Source: Acidimicrobiales bacterium (GTDB lineage: Bacteria > Actinomycetota > Acidimicrobiia > Acidimicrobiales > AC-9). Taken from it: a DNA stretch of 33,234 nucleotides. The translations under genes and the position numbers were made by a program. The notes under the pieces were generated by a model, which had not been told where the DNA came from, searched no databases, and saw only the letters and a list, made by a program, of their open reading frames with translations. Positions 8,455-31,878 of the stretch are shown one piece after another; within the stretch, counting starts at the first letter, position 1; each line of letters starts with the position of its first letter. The stretch lies in the NCBI GenBank assembly GCA_036491125.1, contig DASXCO010000205.1, forward strand, positions 1 through 33,234, given 5' to 3'.

Positions 8455-9218
8455 TGGAGCTCCCGGGAGGGCGAGACCGTCTCGGTATCGGCCAGGCGCG
8501 GAGCTGCCCCTCTGCGCACGTTCTGGCGCGCCGCGGACAGCTCGCGGATCGCGGGGATCAGCACGCTGCGGATGGACAACCGCGAGTTCGGCCTGTTGAT
8601 CCATTCGATGCCGACCTCGGTCACGCGGTAGCCCAAGCTGTTTGCCATCGACAGCGCCTCGGCATCGAAGACCCAGCCGTCGACGACGACACGCTCGAAC
8701 ACCGCACGAGCGGCCTCCGCCCGCCAGAGCTTGAATCCACAGTAGACATCGCGTGTGAGCCGACCGACGATCAACCGGGTCAGGACGAGGAAGCCCAAAC
8801 CCACGAACCGCCGGCGCAGCGGCTGTTGGTGTGCGACATGGGCGCCCGTTGCGATGCGAGACCCGACCACGACGTCGGCCTCCTCGGCTGCGCCGAGCAG
8901 ACGCGGGAGCGACCCGAGCGACGGGACGCAGTCGGCGTCGCACATGAGGCGAAGATCGCCACTCGCCGCCAGCATCCCGCGGCGAACCGAGAACCCCTTG
9001 CCCAGATTCACTTCGTTGCGCAGGAGGCGCACATGTGTCCCGTCGAGGAAAGGCTGGACGCGCTCGCAGGTCCTGTCCGTGCTGGCGTTGTCGACGATGA
9101 TGATCTCCCACTCCCCACCCCGCTCCTCCAGCAGCGCACGGGCGGCGGTGAGAATGTTCTGAACCTCATCCTCCTCGTTGAGAACGGGGATGACGATCGA
9201 CAACGACCTCGGCGGCAT
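8451..9218 (-). CDS. GT2 glycosyltransferase, polyprenyl-phosphate sugar transferase type
   Basis: With the ATG at 9218 the protein has 255 residues: SIVIPVLNEE near the N-terminus, DNASTD, then the metal-binding CDAD (D94/D96) and GSR. This is a GT-A fold of the dolichyl/polyprenyl-phosphate glycosyltransferase type, which moves a sugar from a nucleotide donor to a lipid phosphate on the cytoplasmic side. No strong membrane segment is present beyond a moderately hydrophobic stretch around GLGFLVLTRLIVG. A GTG at 9251, inside the upstream methyltransferase gene, would add 11 residues. Neither start has a clear ribosome site, and 9218 puts the first beta strand at the usual distance. The stop overlaps the next gene by ATGA. 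It is paralogous in role to the GT2 at 13306-14316, which unlike this one carries membrane anchors. Confidence 0.85.
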   Translation of the reverse strand: MPPRSLSIVIPVLNEEDEVQNILTAARALLEERGGEWEIIIVDNASTDRTCERVQPFLDGTHVRLLRNEVNLGKGFSVRRGMLAASGDLRLMCDADCVPSLGSLPRLLGAAEEADVVVGSRIATGAHVAHQQPLRRRFVGLGFLVLTRLIVGRLTRDVYCGFKLWRAEAARAVFERVVVDGWVFDAEALSMANSLGYRVTEVGIEWINRPNSRLSIRSVLIPAIRELSAARQNVRRGAAPRLADTETVSPSRELQ

Positions 9219-15912: not shown

Positions 15913-17958
15913 TCACCTCGCTTCGCTCGACGCCGCGATGACGCAGTCCGGTACCGCTTGGGGTGATGCGCTGCGCCACAACTGATCGGTCGTACAGGAA
16001 GCGAAGCTCTGGGGCGATACCGATCGCGGCGGACTTGGTGACTGAAGACCGGACCAGACCCAAGCGTCGTCGCGGAACTCCGGCCGGCGACCGGTCGCCG
16101 CAGTGAACATCCCAAGCGCCCACCCGGTAGCCCGACCCTGCTCGTAGTCGGGTAGACGCAAGGGATCTGGGACGACCACCATCGTCACCCGCCAACCGGC
16201 GATTGCTTGTCGTACCGCGTCGACGGTCGCCGCTGTCCCCGGGGGCGGTCCAGGGAGCGAAAGCGACGCTGCCGTGAGGACTTCGACGCCGGGTCGCTCT
16301 TTGCCGGCGCGGGCCGGGAGGGCCTGGGGTCCGGCGCCACCTGCAAGGGCGAAATGCATCGAGTCGACAGCCTGCCACAGCATCGGCACCCCGCCGGCAA
16401 ACGGCGGAGGATAGGCCAGCACCACCTGGCCGGGGGGCAGATGCGGGGCGACGTCGGCGAACCAATGAGGGAGCCTGATCGCCTGGGCCGTGAGCGGGAC
16501 CCTGCCGACGGCGGCTGTGCCCAGTGGCACCGCGCCCACGGCGGCCACGCCGAGAGCGGCCAACGACGCCAGCACGCCCGTCAGAGCCGGGCCGCGACTC
16601 CCCCACCGGCTACCGGCCGTGCGTCGTAGTAGCGCGGCGACGGAGCCGCGGGCCCGGTCCACGACGATGGCGAGCATCACGGCAACGCACAACGTGGTCA
16701 CGGCGATGAACCGCGCCGGAAGTGCGTTCTGCACCAGGGGGATGCGGGCCAGAACCTGCCAGGGCACCCAGCTGCCGGTGCCCACCCCGAGCGACAGCAG
16801 GACGCTGATCACCCCCAGCCCACCGAACAGCCACAGGCGCCGATCGCGCCGCCACGCGACGAGACCACCAGCGAGCACCACCAGCATCCCAATCCCGAGA
16901 TACTCGGGAAGCGGAAGAGCGGGACCCGAGTACCCGCTCAAGAGCTGAACGAGACCTCTGTTCTGAAACGTCAACTGCCAGAGACCGTTGGGCGAGATGC
17001 CGACGCCGCCGGGGGTCAGAGTCGGCCACACCAGCCCGGAGAGGTGGGCCGGACCAGCGACGGTGAACCACAGCGGGTACGCGAGGAGCACCACGGCGAC
17101 GACGGCCCCCATCCCGAGGCCGCGAGCAGCGTGAGGGAGGCGACCGATCAGATCCCCTCGGTCCCGGACCGCTGCATAGATCCCGAGCATCGCGAGCCCC
17201 ACTACACCGCACACGGCCAGGATGACCACCATCTCGCTGCTCACGAAGAACTCGACGGTCACGAGGAGCCCCAGGGCCGCGCCGACCAGCGTGGGCCGCC
17301 GCCGCTGGCGCACGAGCAGCTCGTCGAGACAGGCGACGATGAGCGGCAAGAGGGCGAGGAATGCCGTCATGACGTGGGCGATGGCCTCGGCGGTGAGCAT
17401 GAACGGGGAGAACCCGTAGACCAACCCACCGACGAATGCGGCCGGTGTCCAGGACACCCAGCGGCGCAAGAGCCAGAACATCGCCAGGGCCGACAGGGCC
17501 GGCGCCAGCGTCAAGGCCACGTTCAACGTGGCGACCGGCCCGAACAGCAGCGTCACTGGGGCAAGCGGGACGCCAATGGCGAGGGCGCTCACGTTCGAGA
17601 GCGTGTTCACCCCGGTGGGATGGAACAGCAGGGTCGAGTAGAAGAGGCTGTGACCGTGGGCGAGCGCGTAGGCGGGCCAGGCGAGGAACCAGAGCACGAA
17701 CGCGGGGTCGTCGCACCCGCAGGTTGCCACCCCGGTCGGGTGGGTCGACCACACCTGCCACCACAGGCCGATCGACACCAGCAGGTAGATCGCGAAGGCG
17801 ATGCCGAACACCGCCAGGGGCCGACGGGTCCTCCTGCCGAGGCCGACGGGCGTCCGGTGCGCCTGCCGAGATCGGGAACCCGCATGGCGGGATGGCTGAC
17901 GCCCGGTCTGCGTAGTGACGAGGCCGCCTTCCTCGGTCGCTCCGACACCGCCAGTCAT
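15913..17958 (-). CDS. GT-C-like polytopic membrane protein, downstream copy of a tandem pair
   Basis: This 681-residue protein has about twelve membrane segments and an outer C-terminal domain of about 180 residues. The first outer loop carries STHPTGVATCGCDDPAF (from residue 71; C80, C82, D83, D84), in the position where GT-C enzymes hold the catalytic acid. HGHSLFYSTLLFHPTGVN follows. The C-terminus has a conserved cysteine pair (SCTT...PDC), perhaps a disulfide outside the cell. The start ATG at 17958 overlaps the upstream stop (ATGA); the longer open frame to 18093 lies inside the upstream gene. It is closely similar along its whole length to the gene at 17955-19994, so the pair arose by tandem duplication. 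The family resembles uncharacterised bacterial membrane proteins with a GT-C layout; the enzymatic role is inferred. Confidence 0.75.
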   Translation of the reverse strand: MTGGVGATEEGGLVTTQTGRQPSRHAGSRSRQAHRTPVGLGRRTRRPLAVFGIAFAIYLLVSIGLWWQVWSTHPTGVATCGCDDPAFVLWFLAWPAYALAHGHSLFYSTLLFHPTGVNTLSNVSALAIGVPLAPVTLLFGPVATLNVALTLAPALSALAMFWLLRRWVSWTPAAFVGGLVYGFSPFMLTAEAIAHVMTAFLALLPLIVACLDELLVRQRRRPTLVGAALGLLVTVEFFVSSEMVVILAVCGVVGLAMLGIYAAVRDRGDLIGRLPHAARGLGMGAVVAVVLLAYPLWFTVAGPAHLSGLVWPTLTPGGVGISPNGLWQLTFQNRGLVQLLSGYSGPALPLPEYLGIGMLVVLAGGLVAWRRDRRLWLFGGLGVISVLLSLGVGTGSWVPWQVLARIPLVQNALPARFIAVTTLCVAVMLAIVVDRARGSVAALLRRTAGSRWGSRGPALTGVLASLAALGVAAVGAVPLGTAAVGRVPLTAQAIRLPHWFADVAPHLPPGQVVLAYPPPFAGGVPMLWQAVDSMHFALAGGAGPQALPARAGKERPGVEVLTAASLSLPGPPPGTAATVDAVRQAIAGWRVTMVVVPDPLRLPDYEQGRATGWALGMFTAATGRRPEFRDDAWVWSGLQSPSPPRSVSPQSFASCTTDQLWRSASPQAVPDCVIAASSEAR

Positions 17959-19994
17959 TGCGCGGAGGCCGCGATGATGCAGTCCGGTACGTCTTGCCGG
18001 GCCCCGGCCGGGATCAACCCGCCTGTCGTGCACCGCGTGAACGCCAGCGGAGTCACCGCTAGCTGCGGAGCAGGGGACTGGACGCCGGCCCACACCCAGG
18101 CGTCGTCGCGGAGCTCGGGCCTTCGACCGATGGCGGCGGTGAACAGACCGAGCGCCGTCTCGGGGCTAGTTCCCTGGTCGTAGCGAGGCAACCCCGACGG
18201 ATCGGGGACGACCACCATCGTCACCCCCCAACCAGCGAGGGCTCGTCGCACTGCGTCGACGTTGCTGGTTGTCCCCGAGGGTGGTCCTGACAGCGAGAGG
18301 GATGCGGCGCTGAGCACCTCGAGGCCGGGGCGCTCGGCGCCGGCACGGGCTGGTATGCCGGCGGGTCCGCCACCGCCAACCATGGCGAAGTGTAGCGAGT
18401 CGACCGCCTGCCAGGCCATCGGCGCCTGGACGCCTGAGAACGGGGCCGGGTACGCCAACACGACCTGGCCAGGGGGGAGACGCGGGGCGGCGTCGGCAAA
18501 CCAACGAGGGAGTCTGATTGGCTGGACCGTGAGCGGGACCTTGCCGACGACAGCTGTACCGATAGGCACCGTCCCCACGGCAGCCACACCGAGAGCGGCC
18601 AGCGAGGCGAGAACGCCAGTCAGAGCAGGGCCGCGGCGGGCCCAACGGCGGCCGGCGATCCGTGGCAGCAGCTCGGCGGCAGAGCCACGTGCTCGGTCAA
18701 CGATGATGGCGAGCATCACGGCGGCGCACAGCGTGGTGACGGCGACGAAGCGTCCGGGAAGGATGTTCTGGACCAGCGGGACCTGGGCGAGGAGCCGCCA
18801 GGGCACCCAGTAGCGGCTCTCCACCCCGAGCGATAGCAGGACACTGATCACCCCGAGCCCACCGAACAACCACAGGCGCCGATCGCGCCACCAGACGACG
18901 AGACCAGCAGCGAGCACGACAAGCAGACCGAGCCCGAGGTACTCGTACGACGGCAGCGCCGGACCCAAGTACCCGCCGAGCAGTTGGGACACGCGCCGGT
19001 CGGAGGTCGAGAAACCCAGGTGCCAGAGGCCACTGGGTGTGATGCCGCCGCTGCCGGCAGTCAGCGTCGGCCACACCCGCCCGGACAGGTGAGCTGAACC
19101 AGCTAAGGCGAACCACAGCGGGTAGGCGAGGAGTACCAGGGCAACGACGGCCCCGATTCCGAGGCCGCGAGCAGCATGGGGAAGGCGACCGATCAGATCC
19201 TGCCGGTCGGTGAGCAAGGCGTTCGTCCCGAGCATCACCAGCGCCGCGACAGCGGAGATGGCCATGATGACCACCATCTCGCTGCTCACGAAGAACTCCA
19301 CCGTCACGAGGAGCCCCAGGGCCGCGCCAACCAACGCGGGCTGGCGCCGCTGGCGCACGAGCAGCTCGTCGAGGCAAGCGACCACGAGAGGCAGGAGCAC
19401 CAGGAAGCCGAGCATGATGTGCGCAGTGGCTACCGCTGTCAGCACGAATGGGGAGAACCCGTAGACCAGGCCACCGACGAAGGCGGCCGGCGTCCAGGAC
19501 ACCCAGCGGCGCAACAGCCAGAACATCGCCAGGGCCGACAGGGCCGGCGCCAACGTCAAGGCCACGTTCAGCGTGGCGACCGGCCCGAACAGCAGCGTCA
19601 CCGGGACAAGCGGAACGCCAATGGCGAGGGTGCTCACGTTCGAGAGCATGTTCACCCCGCTGGGATGGAACAGCAGCGTCGAGTAGAACAAGTTGTGACC
19701 ATGTGAGAGCGCGTTGGCGGGCCAGGCCAGGAACCAGGTGACGAAGGCAGCATCGCCACATCCGCAGGTCGCCACCCCGGTCGGGTGTGTCGACCAGACG
19801 TGCCACCACAGTCCGACCGACACCAGCAGGTACGGCGCGAAGGCCACTGCGAGCGCCACCAGGGACCGACGACTGAGCGCTCGACGAGAGCGGGAACCCT
19901 CCGAGATCGAGGATTGTCGACGTGTTGTCGATGACCCGGTGAAGGTGCTCTTCTCGGTCGCCTCGACTCCGTCTGCCACAGGCAAGTCTGTCAT
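17955..19994 (-). CDS. GT-C-like polytopic membrane protein, upstream copy of a tandem pair
   Basis: This 679-residue paralog of the next gene has the same layout: polar N-terminus of about 45 residues, about twelve membrane segments and an outer C-terminal domain ending CTT...VPDCIIAAS. The first-loop motif here is TCGCGDAAF (C77, C79, G80, D81), so the first of the two acids in the sister protein is Gly and only D81 is shared. VGAALGLLVTVEFFVSSEMV and DELLVRQRR are identical or nearly so between the copies, while the N-terminal 45 residues differ. It starts 15 bp after the GT39-like gene with a weak GGGGAG ribosome site, and is translationally coupled to the downstream copy. It is probably a glycosyltransferase of the outer face; the donor is unknown. 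Confidence 0.75.
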   Translation of the reverse strand: MTDLPVADGVEATEKSTFTGSSTTRRQSSISEGSRSRRALSRRSLVALAVAFAPYLLVSVGLWWHVWSTHPTGVATCGCGDAAFVTWFLAWPANALSHGHNLFYSTLLFHPSGVNMLSNVSTLAIGVPLVPVTLLFGPVATLNVALTLAPALSALAMFWLLRRWVSWTPAAFVGGLVYGFSPFVLTAVATAHIMLGFLVLLPLVVACLDELLVRQRRQPALVGAALGLLVTVEFFVSSEMVVIMAISAVAALVMLGTNALLTDRQDLIGRLPHAARGLGIGAVVALVLLAYPLWFALAGSAHLSGRVWPTLTAGSGGITPSGLWHLGFSTSDRRVSQLLGGYLGPALPSYEYLGLGLLVVLAAGLVVWWRDRRLWLFGGLGVISVLLSLGVESRYWVPWRLLAQVPLVQNILPGRFVAVTTLCAAVMLAIIVDRARGSAAELLPRIAGRRWARRGPALTGVLASLAALGVAAVGTVPIGTAVVGKVPLTVQPIRLPRWFADAAPRLPPGQVVLAYPAPFSGVQAPMAWQAVDSLHFAMVGGGGPAGIPARAGAERPGLEVLSAASLSLSGPPSGTTSNVDAVRRALAGWGVTMVVVPDPSGLPRYDQGTSPETALGLFTAAIGRRPELRDDAWVWAGVQSPAPQLAVTPLAFTRCTTGGLIPAGARQDVPDCIIAASAQ

Positions 19995-20009: not shown

Positions 20010-21392
20010 CTATCCAGGGCTGCCGGGCGCCCACTGCTGCGGCAGCGCAAGAGGGGAACGCGGGGCCGGGGATGAGGGACCGGCCCCGGCCTCGGCCGTC
20101 TCGGGCTCGATCGGCGGTTCCCGCCGTCGCCGTCGCCACCAGTCGAACGCCGCGGCCAACGCGACCGATGTCAGCACGACGAGGACCGGCTCCGCTTCGA
20201 CGCGGAAACGGACCTGTCCGTAGGACACCACAGCGCTCAGCGTCACGATGATCGGCGGCACGAGAAGCGGCCAGACCGGAGTGCGACGCCGCCACAGCAC
20301 CGCGGTGCCGCCGATGGCCAGAGCGAGCATTGGGTAGTAGAAGGCGAATCCCAGCTCAGTGACCCAGCGGGGACGGCCCTCGGTCTCATTGAGCGCGTCT
20401 TGGGGACGGAAGACGCTCCAGTCGCGTCCCACGCGTGCCGCGAGGACAACGGGCAGGCGCTGCAGGTGGCCGCGCATGTAGGCGAACGCTTTGTCGCGAT
20501 AGGCCCTGGCCGCCACCGAATCGTCGCCGGAAGGTGGGTTGGCCGGAAGGCACTGCCCGGGAGTGAGGGTGGTCCCACCGATCAGGTTGCCGTAGTACGC
20601 GACATCGCAATTCGAGCCGGCCAAGGCGATCCCGTCGTTCGTCGACACGAAGGTCGCATCTTGAAATCGGGCCAGGTCGTAGCCGAACCATGGTGCGATC
20701 ACCAGCCCCGACACCGCCACCACCGTGCCCGCCGTCGCCAGGCCGGACCGCCAGGAGGTCCGGCGTCTCCACAGGAGGAACCACACGGCGAGCAGAGGAG
20801 CGAGCAGCACCACCTCGGCTCGGGCGAGAGTCGCCAGCCCACACACCGCGCCGAGTCCGGCTGCGGTCAGCAGGCGTGGCCGCCGCACCAATTTGTAAGT
20901 CAACAGGAGGGCGCCCGCGACGGTCAACGCTGTCAAGGTCTCGGACATGATGAGCCCGTCGTTCACCCACAGGAACGGGTACGCGGCGGCGATGCCCGCA
21001 GCGAGCAGTCCCGCCCCGTCGCCCGCGATCTCCCGGGCCAGGAGGCCCACGAGCACCACGGTGACCCCGCCGAGCACGACCATGGTGAAGCGCATGGCGA
21101 GCGGGTTGCCGTTGGTCGCCCACGCCACGGGGGTGAGCACGAGCGCAGTGAGCGGCGGATGCTGGGCTGACGGCATGGCGGGAGCAAGCGGATGGGTTAT
21201 CGGAAGGAACGGATCGGTGAAGCCGCCCCCGAAGGCCACTCGGTCGGCCTCGAGCTGGTAGTAGGCAGCGTCGTAGAAGTGCCGGTCGTAACGGGTGACT
21301 CCCAGCACGAAGGTCGCGCGGATTGCCAAGGCCGCAGCAACGATGAGAAACAGCGTCACGATGAAGCGCCGGCGGCCAGAGACAAGCGCCAC
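20010..21392 (-). CDS. GT39-like (ArnT/PMT-type) membrane glycosyltransferase
   Basis: With the GTG at 21392 the protein has 460 residues. It begins MALVSGRRRF and passes at once into the first membrane helix. FYDAAYYQLEA (D41) in the first outer loop and SAQHPPLTALVL are classic ArnT/PMT features, where the Asp is the catalytic base. About ten more hydrophobic segments follow and the C-terminal 50 residues are polar, Pro/Ser-rich and probably cytoplasmic. I prefer 21392 over the longer open frame to 21458 because TAGGCT lies eight bases upstream of it, the same arrangement as at other leaderless starts here, and because the extra 22 residues look non-homologous. It heads the operon that continues into the duplicated GT-C-like pair. 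Donor and acceptor are unknown. Confidence 0.82.
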   Translation of the reverse strand: MALVSGRRRFIVTLFLIVAAALAIRATFVLGVTRYDRHFYDAAYYQLEADRVAFGGGFTDPFLPITHPLAPAMPSAQHPPLTALVLTPVAWATNGNPLAMRFTMVVLGGVTVVLVGLLAREIAGDGAGLLAAGIAAAYPFLWVNDGLIMSETLTALTVAGALLLTYKLVRRPRLLTAAGLGAVCGLATLARAEVVLLAPLLAVWFLLWRRRTSWRSGLATAGTVVAVSGLVIAPWFGYDLARFQDATFVSTNDGIALAGSNCDVAYYGNLIGGTTLTPGQCLPANPPSGDDSVAARAYRDKAFAYMRGHLQRLPVVLAARVGRDWSVFRPQDALNETEGRPRWVTELGFAFYYPMLALAIGGTAVLWRRRTPVWPLLVPPIIVTLSAVVSYGQVRFRVEAEPVLVVLTSVALAAAFDWWRRRRREPPIEPETAEAGAGPSSPAPRSPLALPQQWAPGSPG

Positions 21393-21400
21393 GAGCCGGC

Positions 21401-21406
21401 AGCCTA
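21401..21406 (-). promoter_or_regulatory. Candidate -10 box, leaderless start of the GT39-like operon
   Basis: The minus strand reads TAGGCT, eight bases, then GTG at 21392. The hexamer is identical to the one before the gene at 10023. It implies that the open frame from 21458 to 21392 is upstream of the transcript. Confidence 0.5.
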
Positions 21407-21486
21407 GGGGCTCGGGCCGCTCCAGCGCGTTGCACCGCACGGTCAGGCCGGCCGCCACGGTGCGAAGCTTCCCGCGCTCCAGGGGT

Positions 21487-21623: not shown

Positions 21624-24323
21624 ATGACGATCACCGGCGAGCGACCCCTGGCCTTGCCGCGACGGCGGCGGGCCGCCGGCGCCCCAGCGAAGGCCGCCGC
21701 CCCCCAGCGGCACATGCCCGCCCTGGACGGGCTGCGGGCCTTCGCCGTGACGGCGGTGATCGCCTACCACCTCAACCTCACGCACGCGGGAGGCGGCTAC
21801 CTCGGGGTCGACGTCTTCTTCGTGCTGTCCGGCTTCCTCATCACCGGGATCCTGGTCGAGGAGCGAGCCCGCACCGGCCGGATCGTCCTGAAGGCGTTCT
21901 GGGCTCGGCGAGCCCGACGGCTCCTCCCGGCCCTGCTGCTGATGCTGTCCGCTTTGGCCCTGTATGCCGGACTAGGCAGCCCGGGTCTGGACCGGTCGAC
22001 CTTGCGGCCCGACGCCCTGTCGACCCTCTTCTATGGGGCCAACTGGCATCTGATCTTCACCCACAGCTCGTACTTCGCCCAGTTCTCGGCTCCCTCACCG
22101 CTCCTGCACACCTGGTCCCTCGCCATCGAAGAGCAGTTCTACCTCTTGTGGCCGCTCATCCTGCTTCTTCTGCTCCGAGCAACCCGGGGTTCGCGTCGCC
22201 TGCTGACCGGCGCCATCCTGGCCCTCGCCGCCGGCTCGGCCGCCTTGATGGGGCTGCTGTACCACCCTGGCGTCGATCCGAGCCGCATCTACTACGGCAC
22301 CGACACGAGGGCTTTCGAGCTGCTCATCGGGGCCGCCCTCGCCGTTGTCATGGCCGGGCGATCGCGTCCGTCCCGAGCCCCTCGGCGGGCGTTGCACACC
22401 GCCGGGTTGGTCGCCATCGGAGCCGTCGCCGCAGCCTGCGCGACCGCGTCGCCGCAGGGCTGGATCTGGCGGGGCGGACTCGTCGGCGTCGGCGTCCTCA
22501 CCGCGGTGGTCATCGCAAGTATCAGCCTTACGCGGTCCGGCCCGCTCGGGGCCGTCCTGTCGCTGGCACCGATCCGGTGGATCGGGATCATCTCCTATGG
22601 GCTGTACCTGTGGCACTGGCCGGTCATCGTGCTCATGACCCGCACCAAGACCGGGATCTCGGGTTGGCCCCTCAGGGGAGCACAGATCGGAACCATGCTG
22701 GCGCTGGCCACCGCCAGCTATCTCCTCGTCGAGCGACCCATCCGGCGGGCCCGGTGGGCGGGCTGGAGACCCTGGTTGACGGCCCCCGCCGCTGTCACGG
22801 CGACGGCCGCTGCGTTGGTGGCCGCCACGGCCGTTCCGAGCACCGTGGCGGCGGCCGTCGCCCCTCCGGTGACCAGCTCCAGGCCTGCCCTTGCGGCGGC
22901 CACGCCGACCGCCTCGACCAGCGTGATGGTGGTGGGCGGCAGCACGGCCCTCAGCTTGGCCTCCGGCATGGAGGACGCCGCCGGCGCGCACGGGCTGGCT
23001 GTCCACAATGCAGCCGGTCCCGGCTGCAGCATGGCCGAGGGGTCGACGGCCGACGATCTCGACGGGATCACCCGTCCGACGACCGAGTCACCGGCCTGCC
23101 GGTGGCGCGCGGCCTGGCCGCGCCAGCTCCAGCAATGGAAGCCGACGGTCGCCTACGTCGCCTTCGGCGCCGAAGACACCGCCGACCACCTCATCGACGG
23201 CCGCTGGATGACAGTGGGAACACCCGAGTGGCAGGCCTACTACCAGGGCGAGCTGGCGCAAGTGGCCGCGCTCCTCGGCTCCGGGGGAGCTCGCGTCGTG
23301 ATCGCGACCGTGCCTCAGTACTCCCAGCCGTCGACAGCGGGGAAGCGCTCTCCCACCTTCGCCGATCCGGTCCGTCTCGCAGCGTTGAACGCGGTCTACC
23401 GCTCATTCGCCGACGCGCATCCCGAGGTGACGCTCTATGACATGGCGTCCCAGGTCGCGCCAGGAGACCTCGGCGACGGGCCAAATCTCAGCCGTCCGGT
23501 CGCCGACCGGGTGGCCGACAACGTCGACGCCTCGCTCTCGATGATCGCCAATCCGACGATCCACCTCCCACCGGGGAGGATCCTGTCGCCGGCCGACCCG
23601 CTCCGGGTCATGATCGTCGGCGACAGCGTCATGATGGATGCCGCTCCTGGTCTCGAGGCGGCCCTCGAGGCGACGGGCGTGGTGAAAGTGGTGGCGAACG
23701 ACCCCAAGAAGTGGTGGGGACTGACGAACAACTCGGGCTGGAAGAGCGCCTGGCCCCAGCTGATCCGCGAGGATCGCCCGGAGCTCGTCATCGGCTCATG
23801 GAGCTGGGACAACGGTGCCGCGGAGGCGGACCCCGCCGCCTACAGCCGGACGGTCGGGCAGGCGATGGGCATGCTGCTCGCTCCGGGGGACGGCGTCGAC
23901 GGCGTCGCCATCATGGAGTTCCCCCCCTACGGACCACCCGCCTCCGTCGTCGATCCGGCCAAGGCGCAGCAGGCCCTCGCCGGCCTGGAGCGGGGCCGCA
24001 CCGCCTGGGACTCGTTGATGGCCTCGGTCGCCCCGCGATGGCCGGGTCAGTACATGTTTCTTCCGGTCGCCAGCTCGCTCGAGGTGAACGGCCAGTACTC
24101 GACCTGGTTGCCAGGGCCCGGGGGGGTCTTGTCGAGGGCCCGGAAGACTGACGACTTCCACCTCTGCCCGACCGGAGCGGCGGCGCTGGGCCAGGCGACG
24201 CTGACCCAGCTCACGCCCGTGCTCGATCTGCCTCCTCCAGCGGCCAGTTGGTGGTCGGGCTCGTGGACGAAGAACTCGACGTACAACGACCCTTCCGGGA
24301 GCTGTCCCGACGACCACCCCTGA
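21624..24323 (+). CDS. OafA-like acyltransferase-3 protein with two C-terminal SGNH domains
   Basis: This 899-residue protein has an acyltransferase-3 membrane domain (about residues 30-375) with MPALDGLRAF, AYHLN (H49), VDVFFVLSGFLITG and SLAIEEQFYLLWP. Such domains pass acyl groups across or at the membrane to glycans. A Ser/Thr/Ala-rich linker follows, then two SGNH-hydrolase-like domains. The first (434-635) has GGS (438-440) in place of GDS, and DxxN (D618, N621) in place of DxxH. The second (660-880) has GDS (666-668) and a full DxxH (D843, H846). The first is therefore probably inactive and the second active. The fused SGNH domain likely completes transfer to the acceptor outside the cell. 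The ATG at 21624 has no ribosome site. A later ATG at 21714 (residue 31) is possible but less likely. Confidence 0.88.
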   Translation: MTITGERPLALPRRRRAAGAPAKAAAPQRHMPALDGLRAFAVTAVIAYHLNLTHAGGGYLGVDVFFVLSGFLITGILVEERARTGRIVLKAFWARRARRLLPALLLMLSALALYAGLGSPGLDRSTLRPDALSTLFYGANWHLIFTHSSYFAQFSAPSPLLHTWSLAIEEQFYLLWPLILLLLLRATRGSRRLLTGAILALAAGSAALMGLLYHPGVDPSRIYYGTDTRAFELLIGAALAVVMAGRSRPSRAPRRALHTAGLVAIGAVAAACATASPQGWIWRGGLVGVGVLTAVVIASISLTRSGPLGAVLSLAPIRWIGIISYGLYLWHWPVIVLMTRTKTGISGWPLRGAQIGTMLALATASYLLVERPIRRARWAGWRPWLTAPAAVTATAAALVAATAVPSTVAAAVAPPVTSSRPALAAATPTASTSVMVVGGSTALSLASGMEDAAGAHGLAVHNAAGPGCSMAEGSTADDLDGITRPTTESPACRWRAAWPRQLQQWKPTVAYVAFGAEDTADHLIDGRWMTVGTPEWQAYYQGELAQVAALLGSGGARVVIATVPQYSQPSTAGKRSPTFADPVRLAALNAVYRSFADAHPEVTLYDMASQVAPGDLGDGPNLSRPVADRVADNVDASLSMIANPTIHLPPGRILSPADPLRVMIVGDSVMMDAAPGLEAALEATGVVKVVANDPKKWWGLTNNSGWKSAWPQLIREDRPELVIGSWSWDNGAAEADPAAYSRTVGQAMGMLLAPGDGVDGVAIMEFPPYGPPASVVDPAKAQQALAGLERGRTAWDSLMASVAPRWPGQYMFLPVASSLEVNGQYSTWLPGPGGVLSRARKTDDFHLCPTGAAALGQATLTQLTPVLDLPPPAASWWSGSWTKNSTYNDPSGSCPDDHP

Positions 24324-24399: not shown

Positions 24400-24477
24400 A
24401 TGGCGTGGCAGAAGGGGGAGCAGGGCGGGCCCGCGACCGGAGCGCTGCACAGCGGCGCGACTGAGGTTCCCCTCTGA
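24400..24477 (+). CDS. Short upstream ORF (25 aa) coupled to the flippase gene
   Basis: The ORF begins ATGGCGTGGCAG and ends at TGA (24475-24477), whose last base is the A of the flippase ATG (TGATG). The peptide begins MAWQKGEQGG and resembles nothing I know. No ribosome site precedes it, but a TAGCAT box lies seven bases upstream, so it could be read from a leaderless message. Ribosomes finishing it would be placed on the flippase start, which itself lacks a clear Shine-Dalgarno sequence. The coding case rests only on position; chance is not excluded. Confidence 0.45.
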   Translation: MAWQKGEQGGPATGALHSGATEVPL

Positions 24478-25991
24478 TGGCCGGCTCGACCACCGCTGCC
24501 CCGAGCGGCGCGACGAGGAGGGCACGCGTGAGTGCCCGTCCGTCCGTCGTGGCCCTGCGCCGAGCCGGCCCCCTGGCCTTCGCCGGCGTGGCTGCCAACG
24601 CCGCCAATGTCATCGTCACCGTCACGATCGCCCACCTGCTCAGCTCCCGCGACTACGGATCGCTGGGACAGCTGCTGGTCCTGTTCCTCGTGCTCTCGAT
24701 GCCAGGATCGGCCCTGCTCGTGGCCGTCGTGCGGCGGGTCACGGCCTGGTCGATGGCAGGTCAGGCCGATCGGATCAAGCCCTGGGCGTCCAGCGTGCGC
24801 CGCTGGGGGTTCCTGGGCCTGGCCCTCCTGGCCCTGGTGGCGTGGCTGAGCCGTTCGTGGCTCGCGACCGCGCTCTCGCTGCCTGGCCCCGACGGGGTGG
24901 CGGAGTTCCTGATCGCCGGGGGGGCGTGGGGACTCCTCTCGTTCGAACGAGGGCTCATCCAGGCCGACCGCAACTACACCGGCCTGGCGTGGAACCTGTG
25001 CGTCGAGGCCGGAGTCCGGACCACGCTGACGGTGGCCCTCATCGGCATCGGTCTCGGCGTGGAGGGGGCTGGACTGGCGCTGATGGCAGCCATGGGCGCC
25101 GCCATCGGCCATGCCCGTTGGGCCGAGGCGCGCGCCCGTCCCGCCGTTGCACCGCCGGCAACCGAGCAGGCCGAGGCCGGCCCGGGAGGCCGGCCCAATG
25201 GACAGGTGCCGGCGCGAAGCGCCCAGGCCGGCCCGGGAGGCCGGCACGAAGGCGACCCTGAAGAGGTCGAGCCCGAGGTCGGGCCCTCCCCCGTGCTGCC
25301 CATCGAGGAGGCAGACGCCGAAGGCCTACCGACCACGGCGGCTGCGGCAGTCGACGACGCGGGCCGGGGGCGGCTCCTTGCCGTGGACCTCGTCGCCGCC
25401 CTCGGGGCCTTGTTCTTCCTCGCCGCCCTCCAGGGCCTCGACGTCGAGATCGTGGGCCGGGAGTCGCCCGGCTCGGTCGGCTCGTACAACGCCATCTCGG
25501 TGGCATCCAAGGCCGTGGTCTTCCTCGCCATCGTGCTCAGCGGCTATCTGCTGCCCGAGGCGGTGGTGCGCTGGCGCCGGGGCGGCCACGCCCTCAGCCA
25601 GCTCGGCGTGGCACTCGTTCTCGTGGCGGTACCGGTTCTCGTGCTCACCACGTTGGCCGCCGCCGCGCCCGACGAGATGCTGCGAATCCTCTTCGGGCCG
25701 GACAAGGTGCGGGCAGCCTCCGCCTTCGCCACCCTCGCCCTGGCCATGGGATGCCTCGCCGCCAGCACGCTGTTCACCTACTACCTCCTGGGCATCGGAC
25801 GCCGGTGGATCGTCGGTGTCCTGGCCGTGGCGACCTTGGTCACCATCCTGCTGGTCAACGCCGCCCACGGGCACGCCCTTTCGACTGCGCGGGCCGAGCT
25901 GGCCTGCCAGGGCGCGCTCGCCCTCATCCTCGGGATCCTGGTCGTATCGGCTCCCAGGAGCATCCGATCCGGTAGCCTGACTCGTTCGTGA
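24477..25991 (+). CDS. Wzx-like polysaccharide/lipid-linked oligosaccharide flippase (MOP superfamily)
   Basis: This 504-residue protein has about twelve membrane segments. LAFAGVAANAANVIVTVTIAHLLSSRDYGSLGQ near the N-terminus matches the opening of Wzx-type exporters (AxxLLspxdYG). These proteins flip polyprenyl-diphosphate-linked glycans from the inner to the outer face. Helices 6 and 7 are separated by a polar loop of about 80 residues (222-300), rich in Pro, Gly, Ala and Glu, which is long for the family. That loop is encoded by a palindromic, partly repeated DNA block at 25174-25247. The ATG at 24477 overlaps the stop of a 25-codon ORF (TGATG). The stop overlaps GTG at 25988, the start of another short ORF. 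The next genes encode a GT4 enzyme and an AftD-like enzyme, consistent with one assembly line. Confidence 0.83.
   Translation: MAGSTTAAPSGATRRARVSARPSVVALRRAGPLAFAGVAANAANVIVTVTIAHLLSSRDYGSLGQLLVLFLVLSMPGSALLVAVVRRVTAWSMAGQADRIKPWASSVRRWGFLGLALLALVAWLSRSWLATALSLPGPDGVAEFLIAGGAWGLLSFERGLIQADRNYTGLAWNLCVEAGVRTTLTVALIGIGLGVEGAGLALMAAMGAAIGHARWAEARARPAVAPPATEQAEAGPGGRPNGQVPARSAQAGPGGRHEGDPEEVEPEVGPSPVLPIEEADAEGLPTTAAAAVDDAGRGRLLAVDLVAALGALFFLAALQGLDVEIVGRESPGSVGSYNAISVASKAVVFLAIVLSGYLLPEAVVRWRRGGHALSQLGVALVLVAVPVLVLTTLAAAAPDEMLRILFGPDKVRAASAFATLALAMGCLAASTLFTYYLLGIGRRWIVGVLAVATLVTILLVNAAHGHALSTARAELACQGALALILGILVVSAPRSIRSGSLTRS
25174..25247 (+). repeat. In-frame palindromic repeat block inside the flippase gene
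   Basis: A 21-base unit (AGGCCGGCCCGGGAGGCCGG plus C) occurs at 25174-25194 and again, identical, at 25225-25245, a period of 51 bases or 17 codons. Each unit is nearly self-complementary (GCCGGCC/GGCCGGC arms). Between them GGCGC-GAA-GCGCC (25211-25223) is another hairpin. The second unit lies in a 42-bp segment bounded by 8-bp inverted repeats, GTGCCGGC (25206-25213) and GCCGGCAC (25240-25247). Confidence 0.8.
25973..25978 (+). promoter_or_regulatory. Candidate -10 box upstream of the GT4-aftD genes
   Basis: TAGCCT followed by GACTCGT lies within the last codons of the flippase gene. It shares ten bases with the element at 21487, and a GTG follows nine bases later. Confidence 0.4.
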
Positions 25992-26053: not shown

Positions 26054-27307
26054 ATGCATTCTGAGGCGGGCTCGGCCACGCCTGGGCCCGGCTCCCGACG
26101 AGACGTCGAGGCCGGTTCACGAGCCGACGCTCCCGGTCGCCCGGGGGGCACGTCTCCCGAGGGCGATATCGCCGCCATCGCCCACCGGGCCGGCCTGCAC
26201 CGCATCCACATCCTCGCCTGGCGGGACCTCGACGATCCTGAGGCGGGCGGCTCGGAGCTGCACGCCTCGACGATCGCCCGGCTGTGGGCGCAGGCCGGCC
26301 TCGACGTCACCATGCGGAGCTCGGCCGCTGCCGGCCACCCCGCGTACGCCCAGCGCGACGGTTACCGGGTGGTCCGCAAGTCGGGGCGTTACGGCGTCTT
26401 CCCCCGCACCGCCCTCAGCGGGCTGGTGGGGCGGACCGGCCAACGCGACGCGCTGGTCGAGGTTTGGAACGGCATGCCCTTCTTCTCTCCCGCCTGGGCC
26501 CGTTGCCCGCGCGTGGTGTTCCTCCACCACGTGCACGCCGAGATGTGGCGCATGGTGCTCAAGCCGGAGATCCTGGCCCGCCTCGGTGAGATGCTCGAGT
26601 TCAGCGCCGCTCCGCCGGTCTACCGCCGCAGCCGCATCGTCACACTGTCGTCGTCGTCGAAGCAGGAGATCGTCGAGATGCTCCGGCTCCCCGAACGCAA
26701 CATCTCGGTCGTCCCCCCGGGCGTCGATCGTCGCTTCACCCCTGGGGGGGCCCGTTCACCGCGACCGCTTGTCGTCGCCGCTGGACGGCTGGTGCCGGTC
26801 AAGCGCTTCGAGCTGCTCATCGACGCGCTCGTGGAGCTGCGAGAACGCCATCCCGGCCTCGAAGCCGTGATCGTCGGCGAAGGCTACGAACGACCCGCCC
26901 TGGAAGCTCGCATCCGCGCTGCTGGAGCGGCCGGGTGGTTGACCCTGCCCGGGCACCTCAGCGACGACGACCTCCTGTCGTTGTACCGGAGGGCGTGGGT
27001 CCTGGCCAGCACCTCCTTGCGCGAGGGATGGGGCATGACCGTCACCGAGGCCGCCGCCTGCGGGACGCCTGCCGTGGTCAGCCGCATCGCCGGTCATCTG
27101 GACGCGGTGGACCACGGCGCCAGCGGCTTTCTCGCCGATGGGCCCGAGCTGGCCGAGCACCTGGACCTCGTGCTGCGAGACGGGGCGCTGCGCCGGCGGC
27201 TGGGGAAGGGCGCGCTGGAGCTCGCCTCCCGGTACACGTGGGAGGCCACCGCCCGGGGCACCCTCGAGGCGCTCGCCTCGACTGCCGCGGCGCGCCCGCA
27301 CCCATGA
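26054..27307 (+). CDS. GT4-family glycosyltransferase
   Basis: This 417-residue protein has a polar, Gly/Pro-rich N-terminus of about 40 residues, then a GT-B fold. The N-terminal domain has WRDLDDPEAGGSELH (the GGSE-type donor/acceptor loop near residues 55-70). The C-terminal domain has VVAAGRLVPVKRFELLIDAL and the EX7E motif (E324 and E332, in EGWGMTVTE) that binds the nucleotide sugar. It is a retaining transferase expected at the inner face of the membrane, adding a sugar to a lipid-linked or growing glycan. GAGGAG at 26037-26042 and GAGG at 26046-26049 precede the ATG. The stop overlaps the aftD-like start (ATGA), so the two proteins are made together. The sugar donor cannot be told from sequence. 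Confidence 0.88.
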   Translation: MHSEAGSATPGPGSRRDVEAGSRADAPGRPGGTSPEGDIAAIAHRAGLHRIHILAWRDLDDPEAGGSELHASTIARLWAQAGLDVTMRSSAAAGHPAYAQRDGYRVVRKSGRYGVFPRTALSGLVGRTGQRDALVEVWNGMPFFSPAWARCPRVVFLHHVHAEMWRMVLKPEILARLGEMLEFSAAPPVYRRSRIVTLSSSSKQEIVEMLRLPERNISVVPPGVDRRFTPGGARSPRPLVVAAGRLVPVKRFELLIDALVELRERHPGLEAVIVGEGYERPALEARIRAAGAAGWLTLPGHLSDDDLLSLYRRAWVLASTSLREGWGMTVTEAAACGTPAVVSRIAGHLDAVDHGASGFLADGPELAEHLDLVLRDGALRRRLGKGALELASRYTWEATARGTLEALASTAAARPHP

Positions 27308-30300
27308 GCATCCTGCGTACGGCGCCCGCTCGCCGGGCCGCCCGATCCGAGGCCCAGCCGAGGCCGGGTCGGGGCGCGGATGTCCGGCGCTGGGGCGTAC
27401 CGCTGCTGCTGGCGGCGGTGGCCTACATCCCGCTGCTCGCCACCAAGCCGGGCATGGTCGAGGCCGACACCAAGCAGTACCTCTACATCAACCCGGGAAA
27501 ACTGCTGGCCGGCGCGTCGACCCTCTGGGACCCCAACGTGGGCATGGGGACCGTCACGCACCAGAACATCGGCTACCTGTTCCCGATGGGTCCCTTCTTC
27601 TGGGTGTTCAACGCCATAGGGGTGCCGGTGTGGGTGGCGCAGCGGCTGTGGATCGGGTCACTGCTCTTCGCTGCCGGTATGGGGATGCTCTTTCTGGTGC
27701 GCACCCTGGCCGCCGACGGGACCGCCCGCCACGCCGGTGCTGCGGTCGGCGACGGCACGTGGCGATCGACGGTGACCATCGGCTCGGGCTGGAGGACCCC
27801 GGCGGTCACGGTCGCGGCGCTGGCCTTCATGCTGAGCCCCTACGTGCTCCAGTACGAAGCGCGCATCTCCGCCTTGCTGATGCCGTGGGCCGCCCTCCCC
27901 TGGCTGGTCGCCTTCGTGGCCCGAGCGCTCAGAGTCGGCGGCTGGCGCTACCCGGCGCTGTTCGCCCTCGTCACGGCCATCACCGGAGCCGTCAACGCCA
28001 CCAGCATCGTGTACGTCCTCATCGCCCCCCTCTTGTGGTTTCCCTACGCCGTCTGGATCCTTCGCGAGGTCACGCTCCGGCGCGCCCTCGTCATCCTGGT
28101 CCGCATGGGCGTCCTCACCGCCCTGCTGTCGCTCTGGTGGCTGGCCGGCCTCGCCACGCAAGCCGGCTACGGCCTCGACGTCCTGCGCTACAGCGAGACC
28201 GTGCAGGCGGTGGCGTCGGCCTCCCTCAGCTACGACATCCTGCGCGGCTTCGGGTTCTGGTACTTCTACGGCCAGGACGGCATCGGCCCGTGGATACAGG
28301 CCTCGGTCGACTTCACCCGCTGGCCGTGGTTGCTGCTCGTCAGCTACGCCGTGCCGGCCGCGGCGTTCCTCGCCGCCGTCGTGATCCGGTGGCGGCACCG
28401 CCTCTACTTCATCGCCTTGATCGGCATCGCCGTCGCCATTGCTGTGGGCGTCCACCCCTACGACCACCCCGCCGCACCTCTCGGATCGCTGCTGAAGTCT
28501 TTCGCCACCGGTTCGACAGCTGGGCTCGCGCTGCGCAACGTGGCCCGAGCCATCCCGCTCCTCGCCCTCGGCTTCGCCATGCTGCTGGCGGCGGGCGTCG
28601 AGGCCCTGTCGGCGTGGTGGAGCCGGCTCGGTATCATCGCTGCCGTCGCCATCGGCGGACTCGTCGCGGCCGACATTGCGCCGCTGTGGGCCGGCCAGTT
28701 CGTCGACGCCAACCTCTCTCGTCCCAGCCAGCTACCGAGCTACTACCAGGCTGCGGCCAACTACATGGACGCACAGGGGAACGCCACCCGTGTGATGGCG
28801 CTGCCCGGCATCGACTTCGCCTCCTACCGGTGGGGCAACAACCTCGTCGATCCCGTCGAGCCGGGCATCATGTCCCGCCCCTTCGTGGCGCGCGAGCAGG
28901 TCCCGTGGGGATCACCGCCATCCGCCGATCTGCTGGTGGCCCTCGACGACCGCCTACAGCAGGGCACGTTCGACCCCGCGTCCCTCGCTCCGCTCGCCCG
29001 TCTCATGGGTATCGGTGACGTCGAGCTGCGTTCCGATCTGCAGTACGAGCGCTACCTGACCGCCAGGACGCTGCCCACCGCGGCCCAGTTCAACCCGCCG
29101 CCGCCCGGCCTGAGCCAGCCGGTGGGCTTCGGTCCACCGGCGAGCCTGCACACCTCGGTCCCGCTCGTCGACGAGCAGACCCTGGGGCCCTCGGCCACCA
29201 CGCCGGACCCGGCGGACCTCGAGGTCTACGGGGTCACCGACCCCCGGTCGATCCTGCGAGCCGAGCCGGCCCAGGAGCCGCTGGTCGTCGCCGGCAACGG
29301 CGACGCGCTGGTCGACGGCGCGTCGGCCGGTCTGCTCAACAGTCAGCAGACGGTGCTGTACCAAGGTGATCTCGACACCAACACCGCCGCTGAGCGACAG
29401 GCCCTCGGCGCCGGCGCCGATCTCGTGCTCACCGACACCAACCGCCGCCGGGCCGAGCGTTGGGACACGATCACCCAGAACACCGGCTACACGGAGCAGG
29501 CCGGCGAGACGCCTCCGGTGCCCGATCCCAACAACAATCCCCTGCCGCTGTTCCCCGGGGCGACCGACGGCACCCGTACCGTCACCCAGCAAGGCGGTAT
29601 CGCCTCGGTCCAAGCGTCCGGCTACGGCAACCCGGTCTCGTACACACCCGCCAACCGCCCCGACCTGGCCATGGACGGCGATCTCTCCACGGCTTGGGAG
29701 GTAGCCGCGTTCAGCAAGGTCGACGATCAGGGCCAGTACCTCCGGATCAACTCGACCCACCCGGTCACCACCGACCACGTCAACGTCGTGCAGCCCCAGA
29801 CCGGGCCCCGCGACCGCTTCATCACCCGGGTCACCCTTCGCTTCGACCACGGACCGGACGTCTCGGCGCAGCTCGGGCCCAGCTCGCTCACACCGGGCGG
29901 GCAGACCATCACCTTCCCGACGCGCACGTTCGGCCGGGTCGACGTCGTCGTTGACACCACCAATTTCGGACTGCGTTCCAACTACAAGACGGCGAGTGGT
30001 GTCGGGTTCGCCGAGGTGCGCGTCGGCGGCGGACCCAACGGCGGTCCCATTCCGCCGGTCGACGAGGTGACCCGCCTTCCCACCGATCTCCTCTCCAAGG
30101 CGGGCACCGCGTCGATCGACCATCGCCTCGTCATCCTGATGACCCGGCTACGCGCCGATCCCTCCCAGCCGATCAAGTCTCCCCCGATAAACGCGGACGA
30201 GGAACGGTCGATGGCGCGCACGTTCTCGTTGCCGACGGCGAGGACCTTCTCGATGTCGGGCACGGCGCGCATCTCCGCCGACGCGCCCGATGACACCATC

Positions 30301-31878
30301 GACCGTCTGCTGGGACGGCCCACGTCGGGTCCGGGATCGGACATCGTCGTCACGTCGTCGAGCCGCCTGCCCGGTGACCTGTCGAACCGGGGCGAGAGCG
30401 CCTTCGACGGCGATCCCACGACCTTCTGGAGCCCGCAGTTCGGCGACCAGGTCGGCCAGTGGCTCCAGGTCCAGCAAGCCCAGCCCGCCACTTTCGATCA
30501 CCTCAACCTGTCGGTGGTGGCCGATGGGCATCATTCGGTCCCGACCAGCCTCAGCATCCAGGCCGACGGGAAGCCTCCGGTCATCGCCGACGTGCCTCCG
30601 GTCGCCGACGTGGCCCGTACGAACGGCACCGTGCAAGTGCCCGTCAGCTTCCCGGCGGTGCAGGGCAGCACGATCCGAGTGACGATCGCCGGCGTCCGTC
30701 AGGAGAGCACGGTCGACTTCCTGAGCCAGCTCCCGAGCGTGCTGCCCGTCGGCATCGCCGAGCTCGGCATCCCCGGCGTGACCCTGCCGCCCGCCGGTCC
30801 GACGGTGCCGAACACCTGCCGGACCGATCTGATGACCGTGGACGGCAGCCCGGTGGGCCTGCGGGTCGTCGGCTCGACGGCTGCCGGCACGGCCCTCCAG
30901 GGCCTGCAGGTACAGCCCTGCGGGCCGGGATCGTCAGGGCTCTCGCTGGGTCCCGGCAACCATGTCATCCGCACGACCCAGGGCGCGGCCTCGGGCATCG
31001 ACCTCGACCAGCTGGGGCTCGGGTCGGAGCGGGGCGGAGCCGCCCTGGCCACCGGGCCGACGGGCCAGGTGGTGCCGGCCACGACCATCGCCGCCTCGCC
31101 CGCACCGTCGGTGAAGGTGCTCAGCCAGGACCGGACCACGTCGAAGGTGGCCGTCGACGTCCCGGCGTCCAAGAGCCCGTTCTGGCTGGTTCTGGGGCAG
31201 AGCTTCAACAGCGGCTGGACCGCACAGGTGAACGGCGGCCCCTCGCTCGGGAGCCCGAGGTCGGTCGACGGCTACGCCAACGGGTGGCTGGTGGAGCCCA
31301 AGACGTCGGGCCAGATGCTCGTCACGCTTCACTGGAAGCCCCAGGACCGGGTGAACCTGGCGCTCTATCTGTCGGCCGTGGCCGGCCTCCTGTGCCTGCT
31401 CCTCATCTTCTGGCGTCCCCGGCGGCCTTCTGACGGTGACCGCCACCCGATCGATGCCACCACTTCGGCCGCGACGGAGCCGAGCGGTGGGGACGCACCG
31501 GTGCAGCCCCAGCTGGTCTCGCCGCTGCGGTCGACCGGGCGCCCGGTCTCCCTGCGAGCCGCCCTCGTGCTTACGCTTGCGTCCGCCGCGGTATCGGGCT
31601 TCGTCATCGGTCCGTGGGCGGCGCCGGTGGTCGGGCTGGCCGTCGCCGTTGTGGTGCTGCGTCCAACACTGCGCGCCCTGCTCACGATCGGCGCCGTAGG
31701 CCTGGTGGCGGTCACGGGGCTGTACGTCACCCAGCTCGAGGTGCGCCACAACTTCCCGTCCGGCGCCGACTGGCCGTCGAACTTCAGCGCCGTCACCTGG
31801 GTCGCCTGGTTGGCCGTGGCCCTGCTGGTGGCCGACGCGGTGATCGAGTACCTCAGATCGGTCCGGCGCCAGACCTGA
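27304..31878 (+). CDS. aftD: AftD-like alpha-(1->3)-arabinofuranosyltransferase (DUF3367 type)
   Basis: This is a 1524-residue protein. An N-terminal GT-C membrane domain (about residues 30-465) has MVEADTKQYLYINPGKLL (D55) and LWDPNVGMG...GYLFPMGPFFWVF, characteristic of AftD. A long outer region contains two discoidin/carbohydrate-binding-like modules (about 765-908 and 1012-1138; FDGDPTTFWSP in the second), and four or so membrane helices lie near the C-terminus (1350-1520). In mycobacteria AftD adds arabinofuranose from decaprenyl-phospho-arabinose to arabinan outside the membrane. The size and order match that family. The start ATG at 27304 overlaps the GT4 stop (ATGA); an open extension back to 26935 lies inside the GT4 gene. 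Whether the donor is arabinose in this organism is inferred, as no DprE or UbiA homolog is in the window. It converges with the next gene at a 17-bp gap. Confidence 0.87.
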   Translation: MSILRTAPARRAARSEAQPRPGRGADVRRWGVPLLLAAVAYIPLLATKPGMVEADTKQYLYINPGKLLAGASTLWDPNVGMGTVTHQNIGYLFPMGPFFWVFNAIGVPVWVAQRLWIGSLLFAAGMGMLFLVRTLAADGTARHAGAAVGDGTWRSTVTIGSGWRTPAVTVAALAFMLSPYVLQYEARISALLMPWAALPWLVAFVARALRVGGWRYPALFALVTAITGAVNATSIVYVLIAPLLWFPYAVWILREVTLRRALVILVRMGVLTALLSLWWLAGLATQAGYGLDVLRYSETVQAVASASLSYDILRGFGFWYFYGQDGIGPWIQASVDFTRWPWLLLVSYAVPAAAFLAAVVIRWRHRLYFIALIGIAVAIAVGVHPYDHPAAPLGSLLKSFATGSTAGLALRNVARAIPLLALGFAMLLAAGVEALSAWWSRLGIIAAVAIGGLVAADIAPLWAGQFVDANLSRPSQLPSYYQAAANYMDAQGNATRVMALPGIDFASYRWGNNLVDPVEPGIMSRPFVAREQVPWGSPPSADLLVALDDRLQQGTFDPASLAPLARLMGIGDVELRSDLQYERYLTARTLPTAAQFNPPPPGLSQPVGFGPPASLHTSVPLVDEQTLGPSATTPDPADLEVYGVTDPRSILRAEPAQEPLVVAGNGDALVDGASAGLLNSQQTVLYQGDLDTNTAAERQALGAGADLVLTDTNRRRAERWDTITQNTGYTEQAGETPPVPDPNNNPLPLFPGATDGTRTVTQQGGIASVQASGYGNPVSYTPANRPDLAMDGDLSTAWEVAAFSKVDDQGQYLRINSTHPVTTDHVNVVQPQTGPRDRFITRVTLRFDHGPDVSAQLGPSSLTPGGQTITFPTRTFGRVDVVVDTTNFGLRSNYKTASGVGFAEVRVGGGPNGGPIPPVDEVTRLPTDLLSKAGTASIDHRLVILMTRLRADPSQPIKSPPINADEERSMARTFSLPTARTFSMSGTARISADAPDDTIDRLLGRPTSGPGSDIVVTSSSRLPGDLSNRGESAFDGDPTTFWSPQFGDQVGQWLQVQQAQPATFDHLNLSVVADGHHSVPTSLSIQADGKPPVIADVPPVADVARTNGTVQVPVSFPAVQGSTIRVTIAGVRQESTVDFLSQLPSVLPVGIAELGIPGVTLPPAGPTVPNTCRTDLMTVDGSPVGLRVVGSTAAGTALQGLQVQPCGPGSSGLSLGPGNHVIRTTQGAASGIDLDQLGLGSERGGAALATGPTGQVVPATTIAASPAPSVKVLSQDRTTSKVAVDVPASKSPFWLVLGQSFNSGWTAQVNGGPSLGSPRSVDGYANGWLVEPKTSGQMLVTLHWKPQDRVNLALYLSAVAGLLCLLLIFWRPRRPSDGDRHPIDATTSAATEPSGGDAPVQPQLVSPLRSTGRPVSLRAALVLTLASAAVSGFVIGPWAAPVVGLAVAVVVLRPTLRALLTIGAVGLVAVTGLYVTQLEVRHNFPSGADWPSNFSAVTWVAWLAVALLVADAVIEYLRSVRRQT

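What the first reader, a model, noticed from the sequence alone, without database searches (positions are those of the whole stretch)
22923..24323. Acyltransferase with two SGNH domains in tandem, the first apparently inactive
Bacterial OafA-type acyltransferases commonly carry one C-terminal SGNH domain. Here two follow each other. The first has GGS (residues 438-440) and D618-x-x-N621, so it has lost the block-I Asp and the catalytic His; the second keeps GDS (666-668) and D843-x-x-H846. A dead SGNH module ahead of a live one suggests a glycan-binding or positioning role for the first, as with other pseudo-enzymes. The domain limits are my reading of motifs; the binding role is inference.
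Basis: partly seen in the sequence, partly recalled or inferred. Interest (0 to 1): 0.62.

Follow-up and report, generated by a model that had tools for sequence, protein, structure and literature searches.

The report
Acyltransferase with dead-plus-live SGNH pair
A membrane enzyme that adds acyl groups to surface sugars carries two copies of its outer catalytic module; one of them is losing its active site here, and many related enzymes in the same bacterial order also pair one dead module with one intact one.

Summary
ORF 21624-24323 (+, 899 aa) is an AT3 acyltransferase with two separate SGNH folds: D1 (about 430-642; GGS438-440, DGPN618-621) and D2 (about 655-870; GDS666-668, DDFH843-846). 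AlphaFold2 and PDB matches support both folds. Only three genomes of the family are held: one ortholog keeps a full D1 triad, another lost only the Ser, and the window lost the His. Trees show D1 and D2 are different SGNH lineages, D1 having been inserted between AT3 and D2. A paralog in a sister genome that lacks D2 keeps a live D1. Beyond the window, AT3-SGNH-SGNH proteins recur in at least 9 families of this order. Of 37 found (31 by HMM, 6 by eye), 35 have one intact and one broken copy, 2 have both intact, none both broken; all 102 full-length single-SGNH relatives are intact. One family keeps a dead D1 in all 13 orthologs found. Best explanation: D2 does the transfer; D1 became catalytically redundant, lost chemistry, and persists as a folded spacer or docking module. 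Glycan binding by D1 is possible but untested.

The parts
21624..24323 (+). AT3-SGNH-SGNH acyltransferase, 899 aa, whole ORF
   Evidence: dN well below dS in all segments against orthologs
21720..22817 (+). AT3 membrane domain (res 33-398), with R38-x10-H49 in TMH1; a further long helix 382-403 leads out to D1
   Evidence: PF01757; near-invariant R38, H49; AF2 helices
22911..23549 (+). D1, first SGNH domain (res about 430-642), triad broken: S440 and D618 kept, His replaced by N621; block-I Asp and block-III Trp also lost; C468 and C492 kept
22935..22943 (+). D1 block I GGS (438-440)
23475..23486 (+). D1 block V DGPN (618-621), DGVH in both orthologs
23586..24233 (+). D2, second SGNH domain (res about 655-870), intact triad S668, D843, H846
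24234..24320 (+). C-terminal tail of the D2 family (res 871-899, W..GSWT..P.G.CP.D.P; C848 and C894 invariant)

Best explanation
This is an AT3-SGNH O-acyltransferase of an envelope-glycan gene cluster. AT3 passes an acyl group across the membrane and the second SGNH domain (D2) transfers it to an extracytoplasmic sugar. The first SGNH domain (D1) was inserted between AT3 and D2 in the ancestor of this genus. With D2 present, D1's chemistry became redundant and is being lost lineage by lineage, while its fold is kept as a spacer or docking module that sets D2's position relative to AT3. Shown by computation: two folds, the motif states, intact D2 across relatives, the insertion history, private D1 losses, and constraint on D1. 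Inferred: acyl transfer itself, D1 inactivity, and the spacer role.
For: D2 keeps GDS and DxxH in all three orthologs and in the AT3-D2 family. AT3 of the genus sits inside the AT3-D2 clade (support 0.988) while D1 is in a different SGNH clade, sister to the D1 of paralog L033 (1.0): an insertion, not a recent duplication. Paralogs L033 and L034 in G002, which lack D2, keep an intact D1 triad (GDS, DGVH). Different losses in D1 of each ortholog. dN/dS (NG86, dS near saturation, so rough) is about 0.26-0.43 for D1, 0.24-0.32 for D2 and 0.14-0.20 for AT3: D1 is constrained but least so. Order-wide: 35 of 37 tandem proteins have exactly one broken copy, on either side (26 first, 9 second), never both; 102 of 102 full-length single-SGNH relatives are intact.
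Against: No activity was measured. L005 and L185 keep both triads, so a second active domain is tolerated. The f20 family keeps a dead D1 over long divergence with its own conserved motifs, which suggests more than a passive spacer there. The full-length AF2 model has low confidence for D1 (only 3 sequences covered it), so the arrangement of D1, D2 and AT3 is unknown.
Confidence: 0.6

Rival explanations
1. D1 is a pseudo-enzyme that kept its cleft and binds the acceptor glycan, feeding it to D2.
For: In family f20 Ser and His are lost in all 13 D1 domains while block-I GD is kept in all and the block-V Asp in nearly all, with other family motifs also kept; D1 there evolves under constraint (dN below dS in all pairs, dS often saturated).
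Against: In the window genus the loss is not shared; in other lineages the dead copy is eroded beyond its cleft (L101, L103, L186, L187, L188, L194, L198, L203); no binding data.
Confidence: 0.25
2. D1 was an acyl relay between AT3 and D2 (as AlgJ to AlgX is proposed to be in alginate acetylation) and still is in orthologs with both triads.
For: L005 and L185 have two intact triads; an AlgJ/AlgX two-SGNH relay is proposed in the literature (PMC10302187).
Against: Most tandems lack the nucleophile or the His in one copy, and the dead copy can be first or second, so a covalent relay cannot be general. The 102 single-SGNH relatives need no relay.
Confidence: 0.07
3. D1 is a decaying relic with no present role.
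For: Least constrained segment; different lesions in each ortholog; 15-residue in-frame gap in L005 D1.
Against: Frame open in all three orthologs, dN below dS, Cys pair and core residues kept, AF2 predicts a complete fold.
Confidence: 0.08

Closest known systems
AT3-SGNH fused O-acyltransferases OafA/OafB (Salmonella), OatA
   Same: AT3 with R-x10-H, extra helix, extracytoplasmic SGNH with Ser/Asp/His triad; D2 fold matches PatB, OafB (6se1) and OatA structures.
   Different: Those carry one SGNH domain; the papers read describe only AT3-only, AT3-SGNH and racemase-fused architectures in bacteria.
SucT, mycobacterial arabinan succinyltransferase (NCBIfam NF058601)
   Same: Only NCBIfam hit; the AT3 part aligns (4-410, 3.8e-33); an AftD-type arabinofuranosyltransferase gene lies close by (26935-31878).
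   Different: 114.9 bits against a cut-off of 1275; the hit covers only the AT3 half; one SGNH in SucT by my recollection.
AlgJ/AlgX alginate acetylation
   Same: Two SGNH domains in one acylation route (PMC10302187).
   Different: Separate proteins, both with Ser-His-Asp triads, circularly permuted, with an MBOAT partner.
Oskar OSK domain
   Same: SGNH fold with Ser and His lost and the domain kept (PMC2848206).
   Different: Eukaryotic germ-plasm protein, not in an acyltransferase.

Membership tests
AT3-SGNH fused acyltransferase | PF01757 domain over cut-off | tested here: met
   93.7 bits, cut-off 31
AT3-SGNH fused acyltransferase | C-terminal SGNH with Ser-Asp-His triad | tested here: met
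   D2: S668, D843, H846, invariant in the 24-sequence AT3-D2 alignment
AT3-SGNH fused acyltransferase | One SGNH domain per protein, as in the described members | tested here: not met
   two folds; this is why it is filed as a variant
AT3-SGNH fused acyltransferase | Acyl transfer to an extracytoplasmic glycan | not testable with these tools
   needs biochemistry
Active SGNH hydrolase/transferase (for D1) | Block-I Ser and block-V Asp and His | tested here: not met
   His replaced by Asn
SGNH fold (for D1) | SGNH alpha/beta/alpha fold | tested here: met
   pLDDT 84.9; Z 19.3, rmsd 2.5 over 183 residues to 8gr2
SucT (NF058601) | Score over the equivalog cut-off | tested here: not met
   114.9 of 1275 bits
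Conserved pseudo-enzyme (for D1 in this genus) | Loss of catalytic residues shared by orthologs | tested here: not met
   L005 intact, L004 keeps His, window keeps Ser

The most novel reading that the evidence does not exclude
In this actinobacterial order, AT3 acyltransferases repeatedly acquire a second SGNH domain and then keep exactly one catalytic centre, turning the other copy, first or second in the chain, into a pseudo-SGNH module that controls where or on which glycan the live one acts; the window shows this conversion in progress within one genus.
Probability: 0.35. Interest if true: 0.65.

Novelty: new variant of a known kind. Interest (0 to 1): 0.5.

Why it matters
How AT3 and SGNH domains cooperate is an open question for a large class of surface-modifying enzymes. 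A set of related proteins in which one of two SGNH domains has been switched off, on either side and at different times, is a natural mutagenesis series: it suggests that one triad suffices, that it may sit next to or away from the membrane domain, and it offers ready comparisons (L005 with both triads, L004 and the window with one, L033 with D1 only).

Tried and rejected
Recent tandem duplication: rejected for the window genus, since D1 and D2 fall in different SGNH clades and share about 23% identity over a short stretch, though it fits L024 and L095 (support 0.991, 0.985). Sequencing error or frameshift as cause of the D1 changes: unlikely, as the changes are in frame and span several codons (GACGGGCCAAAT for DGPN). 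Mixed full-length alignments (A3, A5) put D1-type singles on D2, so D1 was modelled alone. A D2 remnant behind the paralogs L033/L034: none found. Tandems outside the order: none seen among the out-of-order genomes of a 396-genome phylum sample at this sensitivity. Literature terms for tandem or inactive SGNH returned four papers, none on AT3 proteins (a second search found none). phmmer of the whole protein against PDB sequences gave nothing useful. The genome-contig scan found only five related loci.

Full report
What is there. The ORF at 21624-24323 (+) encodes 899 residues. Pfam finds AT3 (PF01757, 33-358), SGNH/DUF459 over 430-609 and DUF459 again over the last third. AlphaFold2 of D1 alone with 26 sequences gives pLDDT 84.9 and pTM 0.80; Foldseek and VIA-align place it with PatB and GDSL esterases (Z 19.3, rmsd 2.5 over 183 residues to 8gr2). 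In the full-length model D2 is predicted well and matches the same structures (Z 20.7 to 8tlb), while D1 there is poorly determined because only three sequences covered it. So two SGNH folds are present. D1 keeps Ser440 and Asp618 but has Asn621 for the catalytic His, Gly for the block-I Asp and no block-III Trp. In OafA the His mutant keeps under 1% of activity (PMC7448272), so D1 is very probably inactive.

Is the loss conserved? The family of this genome holds only three genomes, all with the same architecture. L005 (G001) has GDS and DGVH in D1, i.e. a full triad, though with a 15-residue gap after the block-III region; L004 (G002) has GDG and DGVH; the window has GGS and DGPN. D2 is intact in all three. 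Two paralogs in G002, L033 (AT3-D1, 666 aa) and L034 (D1 without AT3, 325 aa), end where D2 would begin and keep an intact D1 triad; no D2 remnant follows them.

Origin. A joined D1-D2 match occurs only in these three genomes among 397 of the order. Elsewhere the D2 type follows AT3 directly in some 25 genomes, with G666, D667, S668, D843 and H846 invariant in the alignment made. In trees the AT3 of the genus and of L033 lies within the AT3-D2 group (0.988), D2 lies with those singles (0.979), and D1 lies elsewhere with L033 (1.0). The simplest history is AT3-D2, insertion of D1, then loss of D2 in the L033 paralog. dN/dS estimates (NG86, dS near saturation, so rough) are lowest for AT3, higher for D2 and highest, but below 1, for D1.

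The wider pattern. Other AT3-SGNH-SGNH proteins turned up in families f3, f7, f12, f20, f28, f34, f52 and f53. In f20, 13 orthologs keep D1 with GDE, GDQ, GDH or GDA and no block-V His, ahead of a D2 with GDS and DGLH or DGVH. L024, L032, L191, L192, L199 and L201 have it the other way round, D1 live and D2 dead; L095 has Ser to Thr in D2. In all, 37 tandem proteins were seen, 31 by HMM and 6 (L101, L103, L186, L187, L189, L201) by eye because the dead copy is too eroded for the model; 35 have exactly one intact triad, two (L005, L185) have both, none has neither. All 102 distinct full-length single-SGNH relatives are intact; one more is cut by a contig end. A Fisher test treating proteins as independent gives 7e-31, but they are related, so the number only shows the direction. 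Candidates were chosen for long open frames, not for triad state, so the contrast stands but the frequency of tandems is not estimated. No such tandem was seen outside the order in the phylum sample.

Context. The gene lies in a glycan cluster: PMT-type genes (38-1384, 20013-21458), nucleotide-sugar genes (6803-9111), GT4 (26054-27307) and an AftD-type arabinofuranosyltransferase (26935-31878). Several neighbours are shared with G001 and G002. G001's contig has the length of record VAWP01000071.1, an uncultured Actinobacteria MAG. The nearest NCBIfam model is SucT, far below cut-off and only over AT3; SucT is needed for succinylation of mycobacterial LAM and arabinogalactan (PMC10503756). An arabinan-like acceptor is a reasonable guess, no more.

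How it likely works. AT3 delivers the acyl group, D2 transfers it, and D1 is a folded insert whose chemistry is redundant. Whether it positions D2, binds glycan or is a passive spacer is open; the conserved dead D1 of f20 makes a role likely there. The papers read and searched here describe no such architecture, within the open-access library searched.

Noticed in passing
L126:2-1999 and L127:96-1070 (G002 C29, C101): Two paralogs of the window gene that stop where D2 would start; one also lacks AT3. Their D1 triads are intact.
   Followed up: yes
L089, L090, L044, L131-L137, L139-L141: Conserved AT3-pseudoSGNH-SGNH orthologs in family f20; D1 has lost Ser and His in all 13.
   Followed up: partly
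L185 (G102 C13): AT3 with two SGNH domains that both keep full triads, besides L005.
   Followed up: partly
L191, L192 (G283, G381): Two neighbouring AT3-SGNH-SGNH genes in one locus, each with a live first and dead second SGNH.
   Followed up: no
26935-31878 (+): 1647-aa AftD-type arabinofuranosyltransferase with F5/8 type C and NADase-type glycan-binding (below cut-off) matches.
   Followed up: no
24477-25991 (+): 504-aa ORF without a Pfam match, 74-80% identical in both congeners near the acyltransferase; possibly a polysaccharide flippase by its hydrophobic look.
   Followed up: no
15913-18093 (-) and 17955-19994 (-): Long ORFs without Pfam matches that overlap slightly; not resolved whether both are coding.
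   Followed up: no
L091, residues 391-624 of the 1036-aa frame: An SGNH domain with GGS but an intact DGVH, showing that the block-I Asp can be lost without loss of the triad.
   Followed up: no
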